Virus record (IMG/VR): IMGVR_UViG_3300042558_004148
Location: 143,416 to 207,415 of that record
Origin: a virus
Length of the DNA: 64,000 bases
Strand: one strand, 5' to 3'
Below are positions 4,091-17,085 of the stretch, piece after piece. Below the pieces are notes generated by a model. The model ran no database searches, was not told where the DNA came from, and saw only the letters and a list, made by a program, of their open reading frames with translations. Numbering within the stretch: the stretch's first letter is position 1; each line of letters begins with the position of its first letter. The translations under genes were made by a program, and so were the position numbers.

Positions 4091-5005
4091 ATGGATAGAA
4101 AGTATGGTTACTGCTGTATAAACATGACTCTAGCTGAAAGCAAGGAGAAAGTTACCACCAATAGAGGAATGGTCAAAAAAACATTTTTGGAGAGAGGAAT
4201 AGATTATGTTTCTGATCTTGCTCTTTTAAATGTCAGAGATCTAAAAAAAATTATTGAATGGAACCATTCTAATTCTATATTCATGTACAGGATGTCCAGT
4301 GACATATTCCCGTGGTGCTCAGAATATGAAATATCCGAATTAAAGGATTATCCGGAGATCAAAGATATTCTTAAGGAATGCGGTGATCTTGCTAAGAAAT
4401 TTGATCAGAGAATAACTTTTCACCCATCACCATATGGTGTGCTTGCATCTGAAAGACCAGACGTTGTAATAAAAGCAATTAAGGAATTATCGCAGCATGG
4501 TGAAATAATGGATATGATGGGTCTGGATAGATCCGTTTATTATCCTATAAACATCCACGTAAATACAACGAAACCAGATAAGGAAAGCGCAGCTAATAGA
4601 TTCTGTGATAATTTTTCGTTATTGCCAGATTCTGTTAAGAGTAGACTTGTCGTGGAAGTTGACGATAAAAAATCCCAGTATACATCGGTGGATCTATTTA
4701 ATATGGTCCATTCGAAAATAGGAATACCTGTTACTTTCGATTATCTACACAATGAATGTAATAAACCAGATAATATGACGGAAGCCCAATCTTTATCTGT
4801 TTGTTTATCCACATGGCCGGAGGGTATACCAGCAATAACACACTACTCCGATTCAAGAAGATTAAACGAGGATTCTACAGCCAGAGAGGTTGCACATTCT
4901 GATTGGATTTGGAAAGCACCCGAAACATACGGATTAAACTTTGATATAGAGTTTGAAGTAAAGATGAAAGAAAGGGCTTTATTAAAATACCTAAATCAAA
5001 TATAA
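4091..5005 (+). CDS. uvsE: UV damage endonuclease, UvdE/UvsE family
   Basis: The 304-residue protein matches the UVDE family: a TIM barrel that nicks DNA 5' to UV photoproducts and some other lesions. Recognisable segments are the N-terminal GYCCINM, the family block MYRMSSDIFPW, the metal-site HPSPYGVL, NIHVN, the VEVDDK segment and the late TFDYLHN and ITHYSDS blocks, which supply metal-binding His/Asp/Glu residues. It would act in repair of phage DNA, probably early, because it sits directly behind a putative early promoter. Length agrees with bacterial UvsE proteins of about 300 residues. Confidence 0.92.
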   Translation: MDRKYGYCCINMTLAESKEKVTTNRGMVKKTFLERGIDYVSDLALLNVRDLKKIIEWNHSNSIFMYRMSSDIFPWCSEYEISELKDYPEIKDILKECGDLAKKFDQRITFHPSPYGVLASERPDVVIKAIKELSQHGEIMDMMGLDRSVYYPINIHVNTTKPDKESAANRFCDNFSLLPDSVKSRLVVEVDDKKSQYTSVDLFNMVHSKIGIPVTFDYLHNECNKPDNMTEAQSLSVCLSTWPEGIPAITHYSDSRRLNEDSTAREVAHSDWIWKAPETYGLNFDIEFEVKMKERALLKYLNQI

Positions 5006-5010
5006 TTTTT

Positions 5011-5241
5011 ATGAAAAATAGTCAAGAGATAGAAGATTTCGAATCGCTACTAGCATCACAGGAAAATTCAAATATTAAATATAACGTTGATACAGATATG
5101 GAGTCATTGGTTAAATATGACTACCTGATCGAAGTTTACGGTAAAGATTTGGTTGACTCCGTGGTTTATAAGAAGAATGATTTATTTGATCCTGAATATT
5201 ATAAGACTGTATTACTGGAATTAGAAAATAGAGGAATGTAA
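5011..5241 (+). CDS. small hypothetical protein
   Basis: A 76-residue acidic protein with no recognised family. It begins 5 bases after the UV endonuclease stop and its stop codon TAA overlaps the next ATG (TAATG), a tight operon arrangement. The C-terminus (YYKTVLLELENRGM) looks helical. Confidence 0.65.
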   Translation: MKNSQEIEDFESLLASQENSNIKYNVDTDMESLVKYDYLIEVYGKDLVDSVVYKKNDLFDPEYYKTVLLELENRGM

Positions 5242-5603
5242 TGTTTAAGGAGGAAGATAATAATCTAGAAAGTGGATATCCCATAGATAAACATCCACAG
5301 TATTCTATATTAAGAAAGCATATAGAAAGATCCGTACAAGATCTATTTTTAATTTCACTAAGAAATCAAAATAGTGATATTTTTTATGTTTTCGAAAAAG
5401 AAGAACAGATAGATGCATTTCTTGAAAGAATGCTTAAGTATTGGGAAAAATACGAGAAGTACGAAACTTGCCAGGAAATAGTTAAGCTTGGGAAGAAGTT
5501 GAAGAAGAAGTGGAAAACCAGAGAATCAAATCCGGAAACAGCCGGCGAGATAAGAATAAAAGATATATTTAGATCAACATTTGATGACGAAAGATTACTA
5601 TAG
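5241..5603 (+). CDS. small helical protein with YEKYETC motif
   Basis: This 120-residue protein is mostly helical and highly charged. Near its centre it carries [19 protein letters not shown], which matches the pattern (E)YEKCxx(L/I) in three tandem small proteins at 19770-20480, so these four appear to be one family. The motif recalls the UVR helical hairpin (FExAAxLRD) of UvrB/UvrC, but that similarity may be only helical convergence. The 3' end overlaps the DnaJ start by 20 bases in another frame. Confidence 0.65.
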
Positions 5604-6603
5604 AATATTAGATGTATCTAAAGATGCTACAGCGGATGATATAAAAAAGGCATATCGTAAATTAGCTATCAAGTACCACCCAGATAAAACTGGGAATGAT
5701 AAGGTGGCGGAAGAAAAATTTAAGGAGATATCGGAAGCCTATGAGATATTATCCGACCCAGCAAAAAGATCGTCTCACGACAGACCACCATTCAGTGGAT
5801 TCTGGGACGGAAGTAATCCATACCAGACTGGTGATTTTTCATCATTCTTTACGGCACAGCAAAGACAGAGCGAACCAAGGGTACATAAGGGTAGAAACAT
5901 TAGCATTTATGTTTCTGTTACTCTGGAGGAAATGATGACGGGAACTAGCAAAAAAGTAAAGATAACAAGGAAGACTCAATGTAGGGATTGCTCCGGAACC
6001 GGCGCAGAAAATGCGGATCTACAAAAATGTAATGAATGTGGTGGTATAGGTAAGGTTAATAGAACTGTACATCATGCATTCGGTGAGGTTGTTATGCAGG
6101 AAGACTGTAAATATTGCTATGGCTCGGGAACAAGGTCTAAATCGAATTGTAAATCATGCTTTGGTTCTGGTACAATAAGGAGAGAAGAGGAGATTGACGT
6201 AAACATACCGAAGGGATCTATTTCCGGAGTCTCTTATTTAATAGTCGGTAAAGGAGACTGGGAAAAATCTCCATCCAACCCAGGTGATTTGGTAATAAAC
6301 GTAGAGGAATATTTACATCCGATTTATACCAGGGATGGCATAAATCTAATTCACGAAAAAAAGGTTTCTTTTAAGGATCTTTGCGTTGGAATAGAAGCTG
6401 AAATTCCTAACTTAAAAGGATCCAATTGGAGAATAAAAATACCTGCAGGATCTTCTCCTGGTAGGCTATTCAGATTACCTGGAAAGGGAATACCCGAATT
6501 TAATGGATTTGGTAGCGGTGATATACTCGTTAAATTAAACCTAAATGTTCCTAAGGATCTCACCGAGGAACAAATAGAAGCATTAGAAAACTTTAAAGAT
6601 TAA
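5584..6603 (+). CDS. dnaJ: DnaJ co-chaperone, type I (J domain, zinc-finger, C-terminal substrate domain)
   Basis: The 339-residue protein has an N-terminal J domain with HPD in KYHPDKTG, a short Gly/Phe-like linker, four CxxCxGxG-type repeats ([32 protein letters not shown]) binding two zincs, and the C-terminal beta domain. It should stimulate a host or phage Hsp70. The ATG at 5584 begins directly with the J domain ([11 protein letters not shown]); the in-frame TTG three bases upstream is unlikely. A complete type I DnaJ is unusual in a phage and might assist capsid or replisome assembly. Confidence 0.95.
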
Positions 6604-6606
6604 AAT

Positions 6607-6918
6607 ATGGAAATGATATTATTATTCCTTTTTATAGGATGGACCTTTGCAACTACCATAGTTAATGGATCTATTTTTGATAGAATTAGAAATTGGCTGC
6701 TAGTTAGAATTCCGCTATTAGGTAAACTTTTTTCTTGCATAAGATGCCTTAGTTTCTGGACTGGATTATTCATATTTGGTATGCTTACCAAATATGACTA
6801 TATACACGAAATTTTTGGACTGCCATTATATTTCAATTTTATAATATATCCATTTATACAGAGTGGGGTTTCAGTAATTATCGAATCATTCGTTATATTT
6901 CTTAGAAAATCAAATTAA
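6607..6918 (+). CDS. small membrane protein, DUF1360-like
   Basis: The 103-residue protein has three or so hydrophobic segments (about 2-20, 42-62, 74-97) and a CIRCLSFWTG motif between the first two. CxxCxxFW next to a membrane helix is typical of DUF1360 proteins found in bacteria and phages, whose function is unknown. It begins 3 bases after dnaJ and is probably co-transcribed. Confidence 0.7.
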   Translation: MEMILLFLFIGWTFATTIVNGSIFDRIRNWLLVRIPLLGKLFSCIRCLSFWTGLFIFGMLTKYDYIHEIFGLPLYFNFIIYPFIQSGVSVIIESFVIFLRKSN

Positions 6919-6923
6919 AATTA

Positions 6924-6934
6924 GTGTAGATGTG
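6924..6934 (+). promoter_or_regulatory. GTGTAGATGTG motif before second topoisomerase gene
   Basis: This 11-mer differs at one base from the motif at 2224-2234 upstream of the other topoisomerase subunit. It lies 60 bases before the ATG at 6995. Shared control of the two subunits is inferred. Confidence 0.35.
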
Positions 6935-6994
6935 GAAATAAAGACCATAGCAGCACTATAAATTAGAAATCATATAAAACCAAGTACAAGCAAG

Positions 6995-8389
6995 ATGAAT
7001 AAGAATTTGAGCATATCTGATCAAATAAACACACAATACAGAACATATGCGCTGTATGTTTTACAAAGCAGAGGTATACCTAATTTCTATGATGGACTTA
7101 CTCCGGTTCAGAGATTGATCCTGGAAAACTCACCTTCCCGATTTAATAAAACTGTGGGTCTTGTTGGTGAAGTCATTAAAACCGGATTATATCACCATGG
7201 GGATTCTTCTTTAGCAGGTGCCATCTCAAAATTGGCGAGACCTTTTGGATGTGCATATGGTATATTGGAAGGAGATGGATATTTTGGATCTCCAGTTAAT
7301 CCAAGTCCAGCCGCTCCGAGATATACATCGGTTAGAATCAACAGTAAAATTAAAGATATACTTTCCAAAAATTCCGACCTAAACGAAAAGAATGAGGAGG
7401 GTGGACATGATTGGATTCATACTGAAGTCCCATTGGGATTACTTACTCACGTGGTTGGTATTGCAGTTGGATACAGAAGTAATATACTTCCCAGAAAGTT
7501 TGAGGATATAATCGAATATCTACAGGGAACACCAAAGTTACTAAAACCTTACTTCAAGGACTTTACTGGGAAGATCAGTAAATATATGGGTGAAGAAAAT
7601 ACGTGGCTTATAGAAAGCTCGTTTGTAGCAGACCCAAACAAAAAAACAATTACCATAGCGGATCTTCCGCCAGTGATGAGGTACGATAGTTTCATTAATA
7701 AACTGGACGATAAACTTGAAAGACTCGGATTTGATTATAGAATAGAAAACAGATCACAGAGTAAATGTGAGCTGGTTGTTTCACTAAGAGGAATCACACC
7801 CGATAATTTTAAGTATGTTTGTGAGGTAGTATCCAAGATATGTAAGATCATAGTTAAGGAGGACGTTATTCTTATTAAGGACGGGAATGTAATGGAATTT
7901 GGTTCGGTGAAAGAATATCTAGATCATTTCAAGGAGCATCTCGAATTGGTTAAACTGAAGAGATTATTAAGAGACGAATCTGATTATTCTAGAGAGCTTA
8001 CTTTCTTAGAGGCAAAATTAAAGTTTCTTAATTTTATGATAACCAAAAAAAGAACAAATCCCGAGATTATTAAATTTTTGGATGAATTTGAATCGTGGAT
8101 TTCTTCACGACTTGGTAAAATAGAATTGGTTAAATTATCAGTTGAACATATAAAACAAACTGAGAACGAAATAGCTGAACTTAAGAAAAAAATTATACAG
8201 GTCAGAAAAGAAATAAAAGAACAGGACAAGATCTATAAGACTATGTGTAAGGAAGTTCTTAAACTTGAAAAAACTAGACATAAGAAAATCATAAATTCTT
8301 TATTTGAACCTGAACAATCCAATGGTATTGAAATATTCCAGGTGGAAGAAGAAGAAATTGAAATTAAGCAGGAAGAGGACGAAATTTAA
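6995..8389 (+). CDS. type II DNA topoisomerase DNA-cleaving subunit (GyrA/ParC; T4 gp52-like)
   Basis: The 464-residue protein corresponds to the breakage-reunion domain of GyrA/ParC and T4 gp52. Visible landmarks are YVLQSRGIPNFYDGLTPVQR, the YHHGD winged-helix segment (66-70), and the catalytic tyrosine in AAPRYTSVR (Y110), which forms the covalent link with DNA. A long charged coiled coil occupies about 310-440, followed by an acidic tail. There is no C-terminal beta-pinwheel DNA-wrapping domain, as in T4. It partners with the ATPase subunit at 2263. Confidence 0.95.
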   Translation: MNKNLSISDQINTQYRTYALYVLQSRGIPNFYDGLTPVQRLILENSPSRFNKTVGLVGEVIKTGLYHHGDSSLAGAISKLARPFGCAYGILEGDGYFGSPVNPSPAAPRYTSVRINSKIKDILSKNSDLNEKNEEGGHDWIHTEVPLGLLTHVVGIAVGYRSNILPRKFEDIIEYLQGTPKLLKPYFKDFTGKISKYMGEENTWLIESSFVADPNKKTITIADLPPVMRYDSFINKLDDKLERLGFDYRIENRSQSKCELVVSLRGITPDNFKYVCEVVSKICKIIVKEDVILIKDGNVMEFGSVKEYLDHFKEHLELVKLKRLLRDESDYSRELTFLEAKLKFLNFMITKKRTNPEIIKFLDEFESWISSRLGKIELVKLSVEHIKQTENEIAELKKKIIQVRKEIKEQDKIYKTMCKEVLKLEKTRHKKIINSLFEPEQSNGIEIFQVEEEEIEIKQEEDEI

Positions 8390-8427
8390 AATAAAAAGAG
8401 AACTAGAACTATTAAATAAATAAAATA

Positions 8428-9201
8428 ATGAAATTAAGAATTACGAGCATACCGAATTTAATTGCTTTCCTTAAGAGATTGAAAGCTGTAGACAAGAGTG
8501 TAATATTAGAAATAACCGACGATATGGTTTTTTCCAAGGTTCATACTCCGGATAAATCAATCATGAAATATTCTAGCGTAAAGATAGGGGATGTTTTAGA
8601 GGGAGATATTGATTGGAAAGGATTAAAGACAGACAGAGTTAAAATAGGTATTATAGATGCTACCAGATTAATGGATGCATTTAAGCACTTTAGACCTGAA
8701 GAAGAGGTATTTTTGGAACTTGTAACAGACCAAGTGGACGGATCTTGCGTAGCGACGGAGGTAAAATTAGTATCTGCATCACTTAATATCAAATTAAGAT
8801 GCGCTGATCTGAATTTATTATCATATATCGAGGATAAGATACTTTCTCTTGTTCACAGTAAGGAAGATTATTTAGTTAATTTTAAAATATACCAATCTGA
8901 TTTTACCACGGTACTTTCACTATGTGGATTGGAAAATAACTCGGAGGAGATACTTTCATTCCAGATAAGTGATAAGAATGCGCATGCTGTAGGTGATTCT
9001 TTCAACTATAAGTTAAACATAGGTGCATCCGAAATATTATTTCATGATGACTCAATTAACAAGGTGGAGCCAAACGTGTACAAGAATCAACTATCACACA
9101 TGGAGGCTGAAACATGCCAGGTTTATGTACATGAGAACAGATTTGTTTTATTCTCTGAACAATCATCAACTTCGATAGCAATCGGATTGGTAGAAAAATA
9201 A
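8428..9201 (+). CDS. probable DNA polymerase sliding clamp (T4 gp45/PCNA-like)
   Basis: The 257-residue protein has clamp-like size and an alternating beta-rich pattern with two similar halves: an N-terminal domain (1-125) and a C-terminal domain, each starting with a helix and hydrophobic strands. It lies directly before the DNA polymerase fragment, the expected neighbour. Sequence motifs of clamps are weak, so the call rests on size, secondary-structure pattern and context. A clamp would encircle DNA and tether polymerase and, in T4, late transcription. Confidence 0.6.
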   Translation: MKLRITSIPNLIAFLKRLKAVDKSVILEITDDMVFSKVHTPDKSIMKYSSVKIGDVLEGDIDWKGLKTDRVKIGIIDATRLMDAFKHFRPEEEVFLELVTDQVDGSCVATEVKLVSASLNIKLRCADLNLLSYIEDKILSLVHSKEDYLVNFKIYQSDFTTVLSLCGLENNSEEILSFQISDKNAHAVGDSFNYKLNIGASEILFHDDSINKVEPNVYKNQLSHMEAETCQVYVHENRFVLFSEQSSTSIAIGLVEK

Positions 9202-9206
9202 TATAA

Positions 9207-10355
9207 ATGAGTCCAGAAGAAAAAATAGAGATTAAGAAAAAGATAGAGAGACTTACCTCACTTAAGAATGAACTTAAGAATGAGGAGCAGGCTATCAAGT
9301 TAACCATGAACTCCATCTATGGAGCGATTGGTAATAACTGGTTTATTTGCTTCAATACTGACGTTGCCGAATCAGTAACTCTGCAGGGACAGGACTTAAT
9401 TAAGTATTCTGAAAAGATACTCGACAAGTATTTTCATGAACATTGGCATCTAGATACAGAATTACACGAGAGATTAGGTATTACTAAGGTAAAGAAAGTT
9501 GTAAAACCCTTGGTTGTATATGGTGACACTGATTCGAATTATGTGACCTTTCAGGAGGTTGTAGATTCCTGTGATTACCAGGGGGAGGACAAGGATCTTA
9601 TTATTAAAATCAATGAATATAGATTAAATGAGTATCTTAGAAAGTGCTTTGATATTTACTCCAAAAAATGGAACACCACGAACTATCAGGATTTTGAGTT
9701 AGAAACTCTTTCATATAACGGTATATTTTTGGGTAAGAAAAAATATGTAGTGAACCTAGCATATGATTCTGGACTTCATATGGATCCACTTCAACAACTC
9801 AAGTTCACTGGGGTTGAAATGATTAAAGGCGGTACCCCTCCATTCGTTAGAGAAAAATTAATATATCTAACTAAATTTATATTCTCCAAAGGTAGGTCAT
9901 TTGACATAAGAGAATTTGTTAAGGAGCTTAAAACCATCAAGAAGGAATTTAAAACTCAGGAGCCCAAGAATATATCGGCATCAGTTAATATAAACAATTA
10001 TGAAAAGTTTATATTAAATGATACTACCGGATTCGAGGTTTCGAAGGGATGCCCGATTCACGTAAGAGCTTCAGGATATCATAATTATTTACTAAATGCA
10101 TCAAAATACAAAAGTAAATATTCACTCATAAGAAGCTCTGAAAAAATAAATTACTATTTTGTTAAAGTTAAATCAATATCGGAGAATAACGTTTTTGCTT
10201 ACCCGCAGGGAACTTATCCATACGAATTTGCTCCACCTATTGATTATGATGAGCAATTTACAAAGACCATACTCGATCCGATAAACAGATTCATAGAGGT
10301 CATGGGATATAATAGGATAAGTCCAAATTTATTCATGATAAACGCACTATTTTAA
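9207..10355 (+). CDS. family B DNA polymerase, C-terminal part (motifs B and C, thumb); split gene
   Basis: The 382-residue protein begins just before polymerase motif B (KLTMNSIYGAIGN, 31-43) and continues with motif C YGDTDS (105-110), carrying catalytic aspartates, and the KKKY template-binding motif (177-180), then a thumb-like region. The exonuclease domain and motif A (the SLYPS-type strand with the other catalytic Asp) are missing, and no ORF upstream in this window supplies them. The gene starts cleanly 5 bases after the clamp gene. It therefore looks like the C-terminal partner of a split polymerase, with the N-terminal part elsewhere in the genome. A degraded gene is less likely because the frame and motifs are intact. 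Confidence 0.9.
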   Translation: MSPEEKIEIKKKIERLTSLKNELKNEEQAIKLTMNSIYGAIGNNWFICFNTDVAESVTLQGQDLIKYSEKILDKYFHEHWHLDTELHERLGITKVKKVVKPLVVYGDTDSNYVTFQEVVDSCDYQGEDKDLIIKINEYRLNEYLRKCFDIYSKKWNTTNYQDFELETLSYNGIFLGKKKYVVNLAYDSGLHMDPLQQLKFTGVEMIKGGTPPFVREKLIYLTKFIFSKGRSFDIREFVKELKTIKKEFKTQEPKNISASVNINNYEKFILNDTTGFEVSKGCPIHVRASGYHNYLLNASKYKSKYSLIRSSEKINYYFVKVKSISENNVFAYPQGTYPYEFAPPIDYDEQFTKTILDPINRFIEVMGYNRISPNLFMINALF

Positions 10356-13338: not shown

Positions 13339-14259
13339 ATGAATAAAATTGAGGCAGTGTATGTGGATTGGCATGCACCCAGAAAATTCAGAGGAGCATC
13401 TTCACCGGTTAAAAAACCATGGGAGATTGCATTAATAATTAGAAGTACATATTTTGCTAGGGAAGCAAATTCCTGGTCTCCTGTTTTATATTGTGACGAA
13501 ATAACATATGCGTATTACGATAAGATAGGACTTCTTGACCACTTCGATAAAGTTTATCCGATATTACCTCTTACTGATATAGGTTTCGATCCGAATATAT
13601 TTTGGGCTGGTGCTAAATTTATAGCAATGAAAAATTGCGATTCGCCGTTTGTAATGATGGATTTGGATGCAGAAATTCGTTTTGAAGTAGATCTTTCCGC
13701 TTATGATGCATTTTTCACACATTATGAGGGTATTATTCCCGGAGATATTAAATTTTATCCGGATCCTGAATATCTTGATACTGATGGATTTTTTAAAGAA
13801 AGATATTCTTTTGAATGGGGTGAAAAAGCTTTCAATACATGTATTTTCCATATTAAGGATCTTATATTAGCAAAGGAATACGCAAATGCAGCTCTAGATT
13901 TTATGTATGGTGTTAGCTCAGTTAATCCAGCATTTGAAAAAGTACCGTATATACTTTTAGCTGAACAGAGATTCGTGTATGAATTCTGTAAAATAAAGAA
14001 TTTGAAAGTCGGTACTCTAATAAAAGGAGAGTATATACCAACCAACTATATGCACGGAGTTGATTCCTTCATTAATTCAGATTTAGCTGAGATTGGCGAG
14101 AAAGGATTTTTGCATGTTTGGGGATATAAAAGCAATCTAAATGGTAACGATGAGGAAGCGGAAAGCTTTTTTGGTAATCTTATTTCGACAGCACCTCAAC
14201 TAAGTAAGCATATAGTTAATTCGGTTTCTCTAAATACTGAATTAACTTTGGATAAATAG
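13339..14259 (+). CDS. glycosyltransferase-like protein (GT-A fold, MDLDAEIR motif)
   Basis: The 306-residue protein has a GT-A-like pattern: an N-terminal substrate strand, alternating strands and helices, and the DxD-type motif VMMDLDAEIRF (about 112-122), followed by family-like segments (PYILLAEQRFVYEF near 200; NYMHG). It resembles the uncharacterised phage/bacterial glycosyltransferase family DUF6734. Donor and acceptor are unknown. No standard promoter was found in the 57-base gap upstream. Confidence 0.7.
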   Translation: MNKIEAVYVDWHAPRKFRGASSPVKKPWEIALIIRSTYFAREANSWSPVLYCDEITYAYYDKIGLLDHFDKVYPILPLTDIGFDPNIFWAGAKFIAMKNCDSPFVMMDLDAEIRFEVDLSAYDAFFTHYEGIIPGDIKFYPDPEYLDTDGFFKERYSFEWGEKAFNTCIFHIKDLILAKEYANAALDFMYGVSSVNPAFEKVPYILLAEQRFVYEFCKIKNLKVGTLIKGEYIPTNYMHGVDSFINSDLAEIGEKGFLHVWGYKSNLNGNDEEAESFFGNLISTAPQLSKHIVNSVSLNTELTLDK

Positions 14260-14281
14260 TTAACTTCCAATCAAACAATAT

Positions 14282-14303
14282 TCGCAATAAATATTTATTT
14301 TTG
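14282..14303 (+). promoter_or_regulatory. putative early promoter of the tmRNA (TCG-N11-TATTTTTG)
   Basis: TCG at 14282-14284 is followed after 11 bases by TATTTTTG (14296-14303), matching the spacing of the other early-type sites. The mature tmRNA 5' end lies about 40 bases downstream, leaving room for a short processed leader. Confidence 0.5.
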
Positions 14304-14346
14304 TGAAGTGAAACATTTAGAGATTCAAGTACTTTAAATAATATAT

Positions 14347-14803
14347 GGGGCTGACCAGGTATTGATTGGCAGCATTAGTTCTTTGAGACGCAGGCAGAGT
14401 TAGTATCGGAAACTCTTTAATAACCTATACAAAGCTTTAAACGGCAAAACAAATGTTTGGGAAGCGATCAACTCGTTTGGTGCTCCCGTATCTCAAGTTG
14501 AGTTCGCAGTAGCGGCTTAATTGTCGGGTCTCAGTTACCTAGGAACAGAAATCTGAAAGCGGGAAAAAGGGTTAATAGTACCACAAATCGATGAGCATCA
14601 GTAACCCTGAGCGAAAGCGACAGTCCACGGAGAAATCTAAGGAGCGCTGTTAATGTGATTCAAATGGAAGATTAGTTCACGATAAACCGAACCATTTAAT
14701 AAGGGAATCGTAAATTTTGTTTATTTAGAAAAATAAACTAAGCCTGTGAATGAGTCCTTAGGGTTAACTGAGCAAGACTAGGGTTCGATTCCCTACAGCT
14801 CCA
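14347..14803 (+). ncRNA. ssrA: tmRNA (trans-translation RNA)
   Basis: The RNA begins GGGGCTGACCAGG and ends with a T-arm (TAGGG-TTCGATT-CCCTA) and CAGCTCCA. The 5' GGGGCTG and 3' CAGCTCC form a 7-bp acceptor stem with one G-U pair. The region CTAAGCCTGTGAA before the 3' tRNA half matches a conserved tmRNA segment, and a tag reading frame ends in GCGGCTTAA. The CCA tail is not encoded. About 457 nt is longer than typical bacterial forms, partly because of the long tag. It would free stalled ribosomes using SmpB, which is not seen in this window and may come from the host. Confidence 0.95.
14443..14520 (+). other. tmRNA tag reading frame, 25 codons plus stop
   Basis: The resume codon is inferred as GGC at 14443, preceded by the TTTAAAC context found before the resume codon of Bacteroidota tmRNAs. 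The encoded tag starts GKTNVWEAIN and ends VEFAVAA before TAA. The hydrophobic FAVAA end corresponds to the ALAA-type degradation signal. Typical tags of this phylum are about 9-10 residues, so this tag is much longer. The resume codon assignment rests on context. Confidence 0.85.
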
Positions 14804-14829
14804 CTGACGCGATTTTGTACTTTAGTTTG

Positions 14830-14837
14830 GATATATA
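14830..14837 (+). promoter_or_regulatory. putative late promoter element GATATATA
   Basis: GATATATAATC lies 20 bases before the ATG of the GIY-YIG gene and 27 bases after the tmRNA 3' end, giving the endonuclease its own transcription start. Confidence 0.5.
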
Positions 14838-14857
14838 ATCTAAACTAAAGTATAGAA

Positions 14858-15700
14858 ATGGCAAGAAAGGAACATAAATACCACTACATCTACAAAATAA
14901 CTTGCACCAGAACCAAAAGATATTATATTGGAATGCACTCAACCGATAAACTAAATGATGGTTATATGGGCGGAGGAAAAAGAATAAGAAATTCGATAAG
15001 AAGACATGGCAAGGAAGCACACACTAAGGAGATTTTGGAATATTTCAATGACAGGGAATCATTAAGAAACAGAGAGATTGTATTAGTTAATGAAGATCTA
15101 TTGAATGATCCGATGTGTATGAATTTACAACCAGGAGGTGGAGGAGGAATAATAAACGAAAAACATCTGAAGGATTTTTGCCAGGCTGGAAATAAAGCAT
15201 TCGTCGAGAAATTAAAGGATGATGTCTATATGAATAGATTCATCGAGTGTACAAAAGAGGGAAGAAAAAAGGCAGTTGCTAAAGCCAAAGAACTCTATGA
15301 AAATGGTACATACAGACTGGACACTTTTAAAGACCGAACGCATACACCCGAAACGATTTTAAAAATGAAGGAAGCAAAGAAATTTCATGGATCCGGTGAT
15401 AAAAATTCCCAGTTTGGAAAAAAATGGATAAAAAATTCAGAAACTATGGAATGCATAAAGATAGATGCATCCGAATATGAAAATTATATAGTTCTGGGAT
15501 GGGAAAGCGGGAGATTCCCAAGTTCAGCTGGATTAACTGTTAAATTAACAGAATCCCAGATTAGCGAAATAAAAACTATGCTATCCGATAATATTATGGT
15601 ATCTGAAATAGCTAAGAATTTCCAAACATCGGTAACAACGATCAGAAAAATAAAACGTGGAGATACTTGGAGACATGTTAATATAGAAGGGCTGGAATAA
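14858..15700 (+). CDS. GIY-YIG homing endonuclease, Seg-like
   Basis: The 280-residue protein has an N-terminal GIY-YIG nuclease domain: YIYKITC (10-16), YYIGMH (22-27), a conserved Arg region and EKHL/NREI helices. A middle NUMOD3-type part (HTPETILKMKEAKKFHGSGDKNSQFGKKW) and a C-terminal helix-turn-helix (VSEIAKNFQTSVTTIRKIKRG) should give DNA specificity. This is the layout of free-standing T4 Seg and intron-encoded endonucleases. It sits 54 bases after the tmRNA gene with no intron, and ends at its own terminator. Confidence 0.92.
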   Translation: MARKEHKYHYIYKITCTRTKRYYIGMHSTDKLNDGYMGGGKRIRNSIRRHGKEAHTKEILEYFNDRESLRNREIVLVNEDLLNDPMCMNLQPGGGGGIINEKHLKDFCQAGNKAFVEKLKDDVYMNRFIECTKEGRKKAVAKAKELYENGTYRLDTFKDRTHTPETILKMKEAKKFHGSGDKNSQFGKKWIKNSETMECIKIDASEYENYIVLGWESGRFPSSAGLTVKLTESQISEIKTMLSDNIMVSEIAKNFQTSVTTIRKIKRGDTWRHVNIEGLE

Positions 15701-15703
15701 TGT

Positions 15704-15731
15704 CCTATTTTCGATGAGAATAGGCTTTTTT
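15704..15731 (+). terminator. terminator after GIY-YIG gene
   Basis: CCTATT and AATAGG pair around a T-rich/GATGAG loop, followed by six T residues. Confidence 0.7.
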
Positions 15732-15752
15732 ATTGAAACTTTATTTTATAAA

Positions 15753-15760
15753 GATATATA
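15753..15760 (+). promoter_or_regulatory. putative late promoter element GATATATA
   Basis: GATATATAATTTT lies 20 bases before the ATG at 15781. It supports 15781 rather than an upstream in-frame start that would lie within the promoter. Confidence 0.5.
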
Positions 15761-15780
15761 ATTTTAAAATAAATTTATAC

Positions 15781-16128
15781 ATGGAAAACATTATTATCTC
15801 AATCTTTGGAGTTATCTTATTATTTGTTATAGCTATTTTTGCTACAAATTGGAAAGAAAAGAAAGAAGATCAAAAAATTGATACCTCTATCAGAACTAAA
15901 AAAACATCATCTAATGTTAATTCATCTGGAGCAACTTCAGGATCGGGCGGAAAAGGTTATATCGGAACTATCGATAAGAACTCAGAAAAAGTAAAGCCGA
16001 AGAAAAAAACACCTAAAGCGAAGGCATCTAAACCTGAATTTCCGATCACTGACAATAAACCAAAACCAGGAGCTAAAAGAGGTAGAAAACCTAAAAAAGA
16101 TAAAGGTAACGATCTATTATTAAGCTAA
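15781..16128 (+). CDS. membrane-anchored basic protein with AT-hook-like motif
   Basis: The 115-residue protein has one N-terminal membrane helix (about residues 3-22, IIISIFGVILLFVIAIFAT) and a Lys/Pro/Ser-rich, probably disordered remainder. Near the C-terminus KPGAKRGRKPKKDK contains an AT-hook-like GRKP core, which binds the minor groove of AT-rich DNA in other proteins. With the short N-terminus outside, the basic tail would be cytoplasmic and could tether DNA to the membrane. That function is inference. Start chosen from the GATATATA position. Confidence 0.7.
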   Translation: MENIIISIFGVILLFVIAIFATNWKEKKEDQKIDTSIRTKKTSSNVNSSGATSGSGGKGYIGTIDKNSEKVKPKKKTPKAKASKPEFPITDNKPKPGAKRGRKPKKDKGNDLLLS

Positions 16129-16147
16129 TATAAATATACAGCATTCA

Positions 16148-16179
16148 AATCCCAATCTTCTCAGATTGGGATTTTTTTT
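16148..16179 (+). terminator. terminator after AT-hook-like membrane gene
   Basis: AAATCCCAATCT pairs with AGATTGGGATTT around a TCTC-type loop, followed by a T run. An early-type promoter begins 12 bases later. Confidence 0.85.
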
Positions 16180-16190
16180 GATTTTATTTT

Positions 16191-16218
16191 TTTGTCCCGT
16201 AATTTTTACTTAACTTTG
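16191..16218 (+). promoter_or_regulatory. putative early promoter (TTTG / CCG-N11-TAACTTTG)
   Basis: TTTG at 16191-16194 and TAACTTTG at 16211-16218 match the Bacteroidota -33/-7 elements with a 16-base spacer; CCG lies at 16197-16199. The ATG follows at 16239. Confidence 0.65.
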
Positions 16219-16238
16219 TATAAATTAAAAAAAAAGAT

Positions 16239-16691
16239 ATGAACCTTAGAAGATTGAAGAAAAGAATGAGTCTAAATTTCGTTAGATTCTCTAGAATAGC
16301 CACTGGGAGATCCTCGGAGATTAAGCATAGGAGAAGCAAGAACGAGAGAATGATTATCAGAATTGTTAGATCAGTCATTAATGTACCCGATAGTAGGGTA
16401 TATTATTCACCTAAGAGTTCTAGATTTTTTCTGCATACGAAGGATCGGAGATATATTATATCAATGGATTCAGAATCCATTAGGATAACGAATCATCATT
16501 TCTTTTTCAATAGTGATCTTAGAAGCAGTGTTTCGGATGAGCTGATGGGTCTTGCATTTTCCAGAATCGAGGAGGATATGATAAAACTGGAATCTGCATC
16601 TATCTTTAATGAGAACATATTTCTTAATGAGGTTTATTCATCGATTAAGGAAAATAGTGAGATAATGGTCGGAATGCCGGTAGAAGAATAA
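16239..16691 (+). CDS. hypothetical early protein
   Basis: A 150-residue protein with a strongly basic first 50 residues (many Arg/Lys) and a beta-like middle (RVYYSPKSSRFFLHTKDRRYIISMD). No family is recognised. It is the first gene behind a good host-type promoter and 16 bases before methylglyoxal synthase, so it is probably expressed early. The basic N-terminus could bind nucleic acid. Confidence 0.65.
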   Translation: MNLRRLKKRMSLNFVRFSRIATGRSSEIKHRRSKNERMIIRIVRSVINVPDSRVYYSPKSSRFFLHTKDRRYIISMDSESIRITNHHFFFNSDLRSSVSDELMGLAFSRIEEDMIKLESASIFNENIFLNEVYSSIKENSEIMVGMPVEE

Positions 16692-16707
16692 AAATAAAAA
16701 GCAGTGA

Positions 16708-17085
16708 ATGAGAATAGCGGTAATAGCACACGATAACAAGAAGGCAGATATGGTTGCATTCGTAATGAAGCGACTGGATTTCTTTTCAAAAATTGAAATT
16801 GTAGCAACTGGAACTACAGGAACACACATAGAACATGCGGGTTTAGATGTAGATCTAAAAAAATCAGGACCTCAAGGAGGTGATGCACAAATTGCAGCTG
16901 AACTTGTGGAGGGAAAGATCGATATGATATTATTTTTCATAGATCCATTAACATCCCATGCACATGAAGTTGACGTACAAATGTTATTAAGATTGTGTAA
17001 TGTGTATAATATACCGATTGCTACAAACTACTCCACTGCTGATCTTCTAATAAGATCAATCAAAAATAACAAATCGCAGGAATGA
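16708..17085 (+). CDS. mgsA: methylglyoxal synthase
   Basis: The 125-residue protein aligns with MgsA, which converts dihydroxyacetone phosphate to methylglyoxal and phosphate. By alignment with the E. coli enzyme all catalytic residues are present: H8 (AHDNKK), D59 in GPQGGDAQ, D79 in FFIDPL, H86 and D89. The phosphate-site TGTTGTH is also intact. It is slightly shorter than cellular enzymes (about 130-150). It follows an early-type promoter and overlaps the next gene by 4 bases. The product is toxic and diverts glycolysis, so a role in host metabolic takeover or anti-host action can be proposed. Confidence 0.93.
   Translation: MRIAVIAHDNKKADMVAFVMKRLDFFSKIEIVATGTTGTHIEHAGLDVDLKKSGPQGGDAQIAAELVEGKIDMILFFIDPLTSHAHEVDVQMLLRLCNVYNIPIATNYSTADLLIRSIKNNKSQE

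What the first reader, a model, noticed from the sequence alone, without database searches (positions are those of the whole stretch)
9207..10355. Split family B DNA polymerase: only the motif B/motif C half is present
The ORF begins just before motif B and contains motifs B, C and KKKY, but exonuclease domain and motif A are absent. The start is clean and follows the clamp gene by 5 bases. Split T4-type polymerases are known in a few phages, but the break here falls between motif A and motif B, so the two catalytic aspartates would lie on different polypeptides.
Basis: partly seen in the sequence, partly recalled or inferred. Interest (0 to 1): 0.7.

Follow-up and report, generated by a model that had tools for sequence, protein, structure and literature searches.

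The report
Two-gene split phage DNA polymerase
This huge phage makes its replicative DNA polymerase as two separate proteins, from genes 14 kb apart, with each half carrying part of the active site; the same cut is known from a few other phages, and here it proves to be a fixed trait of a whole lineage of large phages rather than an oddity or an error.

Summary
Window 9207-10355 encodes the C-terminal half (382 aa: motifs B, C, KKKY, thumb, probable clamp-binding tail) of a T4-type family B DNA polymerase. The missing N-terminal half exists 14.3 kb upstream, outside the window (G000:C1:136907-138307, + strand, 466 aa: three exonuclease motifs, motif A, first fingers helix). No other family B, PolA or Pol III alpha gene was found in the 373 kb record. 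The cut falls at the fingers tip (about RB69 505-530), so the catalytic aspartates and the dNTP-binding residues lie on two chains. It is not an assembly error: 88 of 88 related N-halves, and the related C-halves, are cut at this place; 36 contigs carry both halves, same strand, 13-24 kb apart. Both halves are under strong purifying selection. The break point is not new: Aeromonas phages 44RR (43A/43B) and CC2 are cut at the same place. The tree implies independent splits there and one older split shared by PAU, Tenacibaculum, Lak and other huge phages. The clamp gene directly upstream is confirmed by predicted fold, and the order N-half ... clamp - C-half is shared by much of that lineage. 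Most likely a two-subunit replicative polymerase: a new member of a known kind.

The parts
9207..10355 (+). C-terminal half of split family B DNA polymerase (382 aa): second fingers helix, palm motifs B and C, KKKY, thumb
   Evidence: PF00136 132-451/453, PHROG 1918 and 262; residue alignment to RB69 gp43
9207..9296 (+). residues 1-30: helix that would form the C-half side of the two-chain fingers; relatives' chains start at about the same place before motif B
   Evidence: helix 3-40 in the model, first 20 residues pLDDT about 80
9297..9323 (+). motif B KLTMNSIYG (RB69 K560, N564, Y567, G568)
9519..9536 (+). motif C YGDTDS (RB69 D621, D623); no intein here, although some close relatives are interrupted at DTD|S
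9735..9746 (+). KKKY motif (RB69 K705-Y708)
10320..10352 (+). C-terminal tail SPNLFMINALF, probable clamp-binding peptide (position of RB69 ...SLFDMFDF); the role is inferred
   Evidence: tail conserved in relatives
8428..9201 (+). sliding clamp (PCNA/gp45 type), 5 bases upstream of the C-half
   Evidence: AF2 model pLDDT 83.7; best PDB match PCNA, Z 19.5, rmsd 3.6 over 226 residues; homologues precede the C-half in LR756500, L084, PAU and pT24

Best explanation
The phage's replicative polymerase is a T4 gp43-like family B enzyme made of two non-covalently joined chains. The N-chain (466 aa, gene outside the window at G000:C1:136907-138307) brings the N-terminal and 3'-5' exonuclease domains, motif A and the first fingers helix with the dNTP-gripping R482/K486 equivalents. 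The C-chain (382 aa, window 9207-10355) brings the second fingers helix with K560/N564, motif C, the rest of the palm, the thumb and a C-terminal clamp-binding tail. The chain is cut in the loop at the fingers tip, far from the active site, so the two fingers helices can pack against each other as in the one-chain enzyme and rebuild the active site. The C-chain is encoded right behind the clamp it would bind. The split probably arose once in an ancestor of this huge-phage lineage and has stayed fixed. Shown: both genes, all catalytic residues, site of the break, conservation, purifying selection, clamp fold (predicted). Inferred: physical association, polymerase activity, clamp contact, origin.
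For: N-half found at 14.3 kb, same strand, with exonuclease D114/E116/D222/D327, D411 and R482/K486 equivalents; C-half with K560/N564, D621/D623, KKxY. The two halves cover PHROG 262 back to back, positions 88-496 and 492-840 of 856. The N-half has its own PHROG (2062, 5-497/502) and the C-half its own (1918). No other PolB, PolA or Pol III alpha in the record. Every N-half (88/88) stops 84-93 residues after motif A, and the C-halves begin shortly before motif B. 36 contigs hold both halves, same strand, 12.8-23.9 kb apart. pN 0.06-0.17 against pS above 0.7 in both halves. Clamp fold confirmed. [quoted passage not shown]
Against: No direct evidence of association or activity in this phage. 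The C-half alone gives a poor AlphaFold model (pLDDT 48.7); that fits a chain needing its partner but may only reflect a shallow alignment. The two chains could not be folded together with the tools at hand.
Confidence: 0.93

Rival explanations
1. The two halves are joined after translation (split intein) or at RNA level (trans-splicing) into one chain.
For: Split inteins appear to join pieces of the C-half at motif C in LR756500, Lak-A2 and PTm1 and probably in some close IMG/VR relatives; a split-intein PolB is reported in Pseudomonas phage MIJ3 (PMC6892783).
Against: No intein domain at the end of the N-half or the start of the C-half in this phage; the chains end and begin in fingers helices in all relatives; no group I or II intron at Rfam gathering level in either region.
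Confidence: 0.03
2. Degraded or truncated polymerase: a pseudogene, with the host enzyme or another phage polymerase replicating the genome.
For: Only half of the protein is at the reported place.
Against: Both halves have all catalytic residues and are under strong purifying selection; no other polymerase gene of three families in the record.
Confidence: 0.02
3. Assembly error joining unrelated ends.
For: None beyond the oddity itself.
Against: Same break, order and strand in 36 contigs from many metagenomes, and the same break in isolated phages PAU, PTm1, pT24, MA9V-2.
Confidence: 0.005
4. The C-half works only on its own, for instance as a clamp- or DNA-binding regulator competing with another enzyme.
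For: It is encoded next to the clamp and has a clamp-binding-like tail.
Against: Motif B and motif C residues are kept invariant, which a decoy would not need; a matching N-half always accompanies it where the contig is long enough.
Confidence: 0.015

Closest known systems
Aeromonas phages 44RR2.8t and 25, split gene 43 (43A/43B)
   Same: T4-type family B polymerase in two chains; break in the fingers-tip loop between motifs A and B, at the same alignment place (44RR tested)
   Different: In 44RR the genes are neighbours (about 50 nt apart) and lie downstream of 44-62-regA; the split is an independent event within T4-like phages. Here the genes are 14 kb apart and the clamp precedes the C-half
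Sphingomonas phage PAU gp105/gp110, Tenacibaculum phages PTm1 and pT24, Chryseobacterium phage MA9V-2
   Same: Same break; same side of the tree; N-half upstream of C-half on the same strand; clamp-like gene upstream of the C-half, clear in PAU and pT24, weak in PTm1 and MA9V-2
   Different: Only 2-4 genes between the halves; 23-29% identity; PTm1 also has a split intein at motif C
Uncultured huge phages LR756500-LR756504, LR745206 and Prevotella Lak phages
   Same: Nearest named relatives of both halves; all split at the same place
   Different: Some have the halves about 100 kb or more apart, in LR756501 on opposite strands; LR756500 and Lak-A2 have a further split at motif C by a split intein
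Pseudomonas phage MIJ3 split PolB with split intein (PMC6892783)
   Same: PolB encoded in two ORFs
   Different: Pieces are thought to be joined by an intein; none here

Membership tests
Family B DNA polymerase, T4 gp43-like | Exo I-III acidic residues, motif A DxxSLYP, motif B KxxxNSxYG, motif C DTDS, KKxY | tested here: met
   All present across the two chains; Pfam PF00136 and PF03104 above cut-offs
Family B DNA polymerase, T4 gp43-like | DNA synthesis and proofreading activity | not testable with these tools
   Needs the purified two-chain protein
Split polymerase of the 43A/43B kind (fingers-cut, two-chain PolB) | Break in the loop between the two fingers helices | tested here: met
   Alignment with RB69, T4 and 44RR
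Split polymerase of the 43A/43B kind (fingers-cut, two-chain PolB) | Both chains present in the genome, no intact copy | tested here: met
Split polymerase of the 43A/43B kind (fingers-cut, two-chain PolB) | Chains associate and polymerise DNA | not testable with these tools
   Reported for Aeromonas phage 25 only (PMC2988022)
Aeromonas 44RR/25 gene 43 split as one and the same event | Common descent of the split | tested here: not met
   44RR groups with intact T4/RB69 (100/99), apart from this clade (100/100); 44RR and CC2 themselves do not form one clade (AU p 0.0013)
Split-intein (fractured) polymerase gene | Intein N and C domains at the break | tested here: not met
   No intein domain on either chain
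PCNA/gp45 sliding clamp (window 8428-9201) | PCNA-type clamp fold over the whole chain | tested here: met
   Foldseek and VIA-align on the predicted model, Z 19.5

The most novel reading that the evidence does not exclude
In this huge-phage lineage the polymerase has become an obligate two-subunit enzyme, and the split has been turned to use: the C-chain, carrying the clamp-binding tail and motif C, is made together with the clamp and could load as a clamp-bound subunit, so that active polymerase forms only where a clamp and both chains meet. That would be a control point that one-chain polymerases lack.
Probability: 0.08. Interest if true: 0.65.

Novelty: new member of a known kind. Interest (0 to 1): 0.4.

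Why it matters
The fingers tip of family B polymerases has been cut independently two or three times at one place, and in one large phage lineage the cut has been kept through deep divergence while the halves drifted from a few kb to 100 kb or more apart. That makes it a natural guide to where a replicative polymerase can be cut and still work, and it warns that huge-phage annotation or PolB trees using one chain see only half of the enzyme.

Tried and rejected
Assembly artefact: rejected, same break in 88 N-halves and the related C-halves. Complete second polymerase: no further PolB in the record apart from a 247-aa stand-alone exonuclease-like ORF near G000:46626; no PolA, no Pol III alpha. 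Split intein at the break: none. Trans-spliced introns: no Rfam intron in L003 or L004. AlphaFold model of the C-half alone: pLDDT 48.7, not used. hhalign comparison of the clamp profile with single sequences from PAU, PTm1, pT24, MA9V-2 and T4 gp45 gave no convincing hit; an HMM widened with the LR756500 clamp then ranked the gene upstream of the C-half in PAU and pT24 at E 4e-6 to 5e-6, weaker for PTm1 (0.002) and MA9V-2 (0.025). In Acinetobacter DLP2 only the N-half was seen; its other half was not traced. Literature search for a description of the split in Lak and other huge phages found none in the papers held, though Jug phages are said to have polymerase genes often split by endonucleases (PMC12363816).

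Full report
Observation. ORF 9207-10355 (+) encodes 382 residues that match the second part of family B DNA polymerases: PF00136 positions 132-451 of 453, PHROG 262 positions 492-840 of 856, and PHROG 1918, a 382-position family that is itself a C-half. Motifs B, C and KKKY are present and align with RB69 gp43. The start codon lies 5 bases after the stop of the gene at 8428-9201.

The other half. The window lies at G000:C1:143416-207415 of a 373,485-base virus record. A PF00136 search of that record finds a second place at 137912-138322. It belongs to a 466-aa ORF, L003:10908-12308 = G000:C1:136907-138307, + strand, with PF03104, PF00136 positions 16-152, and PHROG 2062, an N-half-only family, over residues 2-464. 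All exonuclease and motif A residues and the fingers residues R482/K486 are there. PHROG 262 finds only these two halves and a small exonuclease-like ORF near 46.6 kb; PolA and Pol III alpha are not found. Completeness of the record is not known, so a missing gene is not fully excluded.

Where the cut is. Aligned to T4 and RB69, the N-half ends near RB69 505 and the C-half begins 30 residues before the K560 equivalent; the loop at the tip of the fingers is gone. So the catalytic aspartates D411 and D621/D623, and the dNTP-binding pairs R482/K486 and K560/N564, are on different chains. The N-half end (..MLELELEIDQLKKVLDKE) and C-half start (..IEIKKKIERLTSLKNEL..) look like amphipathic helices, as expected for the two fingers helices (sequence; helix 3-40 in the model).

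Not an artefact. Of 88 N-half loci in IMG/VR, all stop 84-93 residues after motif A. In the 44 C-half loci the open stretch before motif B is 28-43 residues in all but two (L164, 71 residues; L181, 20 residues). 36 contigs hold both halves, all same strand, with 12.8-23.9 kb between them (15, 21). Several of these contigs are near-identical, so they are not 36 independent lineages, but they span roughly 67-100% identity. Between relatives pN is 0.06-0.17 while synonymous sites are near saturation in both halves.

Relatives and history. The nearest named relatives are huge uncultured phages and Lak phages, all split at this place; so are PAU (gp105/gp110), PTm1, pT24 and MA9V-2. In a tree of 19 polymerases the T4-like and cyanophage enzymes form one side (100/100), with split 44RR and CC2 placed separately among intact T4/RB69; holding 44RR and CC2 together is rejected (AU p 0.0013). 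The 13 other split enzymes form one group with weak support (68/61), with intact MaF61 as neighbour on a long branch; three changes of state suffice. So the fingers-tip cut has arisen more than once, and one of these events is old and fixed. The direction of every change was not established: MaF61 could be a re-fusion.

Neighbourhood. The upstream gene has no Pfam or PHROG hit, but its model (pLDDT 83.7) has the PCNA clamp fold (Z 19.5, rmsd 3.6, 226 residues). A clamp HMM finds its homologue directly or one gene upstream of the C-half in LR756500, L084, PAU and pT24, and weakly in PTm1 and MA9V-2. The order N-half ... clamp - C-half is therefore shared by much of the lineage and argues for one ancestral break with rearrangement. 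In LR756500 a homing endonuclease gene of PHROG 3339 follows the N-half with a 4-base overlap, which makes an endonuclease insertion a plausible cause, not shown here. The C-halves of the window's group end in a conserved ..NLF...LF, where RB69 has its clamp-binding peptide (the role of the RB69 peptide is from general knowledge).

Motif C inteins. LR756500, Lak-A2 and PTm1 carry a split intein at DTD|S of motif C, with an Intein_splicing domain detected in LR756500. Among close relatives, L181, L182 and L191 have the C-half interrupted at the same place and L183 and L186 have an in-frame insert (inteins by inference). The window phage has none.

Known and new. [quoted passage not shown] PTm1 is annotated in GenBank as split, and Jug phages and MIJ3 are reported to have split polymerase genes. 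I found no paper in the library describing the fixed fingers-tip split across Lak and other huge phages, but the library is incomplete. Verdict: new member of a known kind, ordinary in mechanism, of some interest for its age, fixation and repeated origin.

Noticed in passing
window 14347-14806 (+): A tmRNA gene (Rfam RF00023, 64.3 bits, full model) that ARAGORN misses; likely tag reading frame GKTNVWEAINSFGAPVSQVEFAVAA-stop, a long tag ending in AVAA. Related sequence lies downstream of the C-half in L034, L025 and L026 too.
   Followed up: partly
window 14858-15700 (+): 280-aa ORF just after the tmRNA with a GIY-YIG-like start (by eye) and a resolvase-type HTH at its end, probably a homing endonuclease.
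   Followed up: no
L005 (LR756500) 13416-16816 and 5069-9240: Split inteins with an endonuclease-type gene in between, both in the polymerase C-half (at motif C) and in a ribonucleotide reductase gene.
   Followed up: partly
L181, L182, L191, L183, L186: Close relatives of the window phage with the C-half interrupted or enlarged around motif C DTD|S, while the window phage is free of it: probably a mobile intein site.
   Followed up: partly
LR756501: L011 and L009; Lak-A2: L014 and L010: Polymerase halves 100 kb or more apart and on opposite strands.
   Followed up: no
window 4091-5005 (+): UV-damage endonuclease UvdE gene (PF03851, E 7e-54) among the topoisomerase subunit, DnaJ and clamp genes.
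   Followed up: no
G000:C1:46626-47024 (outside the window): 247-aa stand-alone ORF matching the exonuclease part of PolB (PHROG 262 positions 117-223, E 1.4e-5).
   Followed up: no
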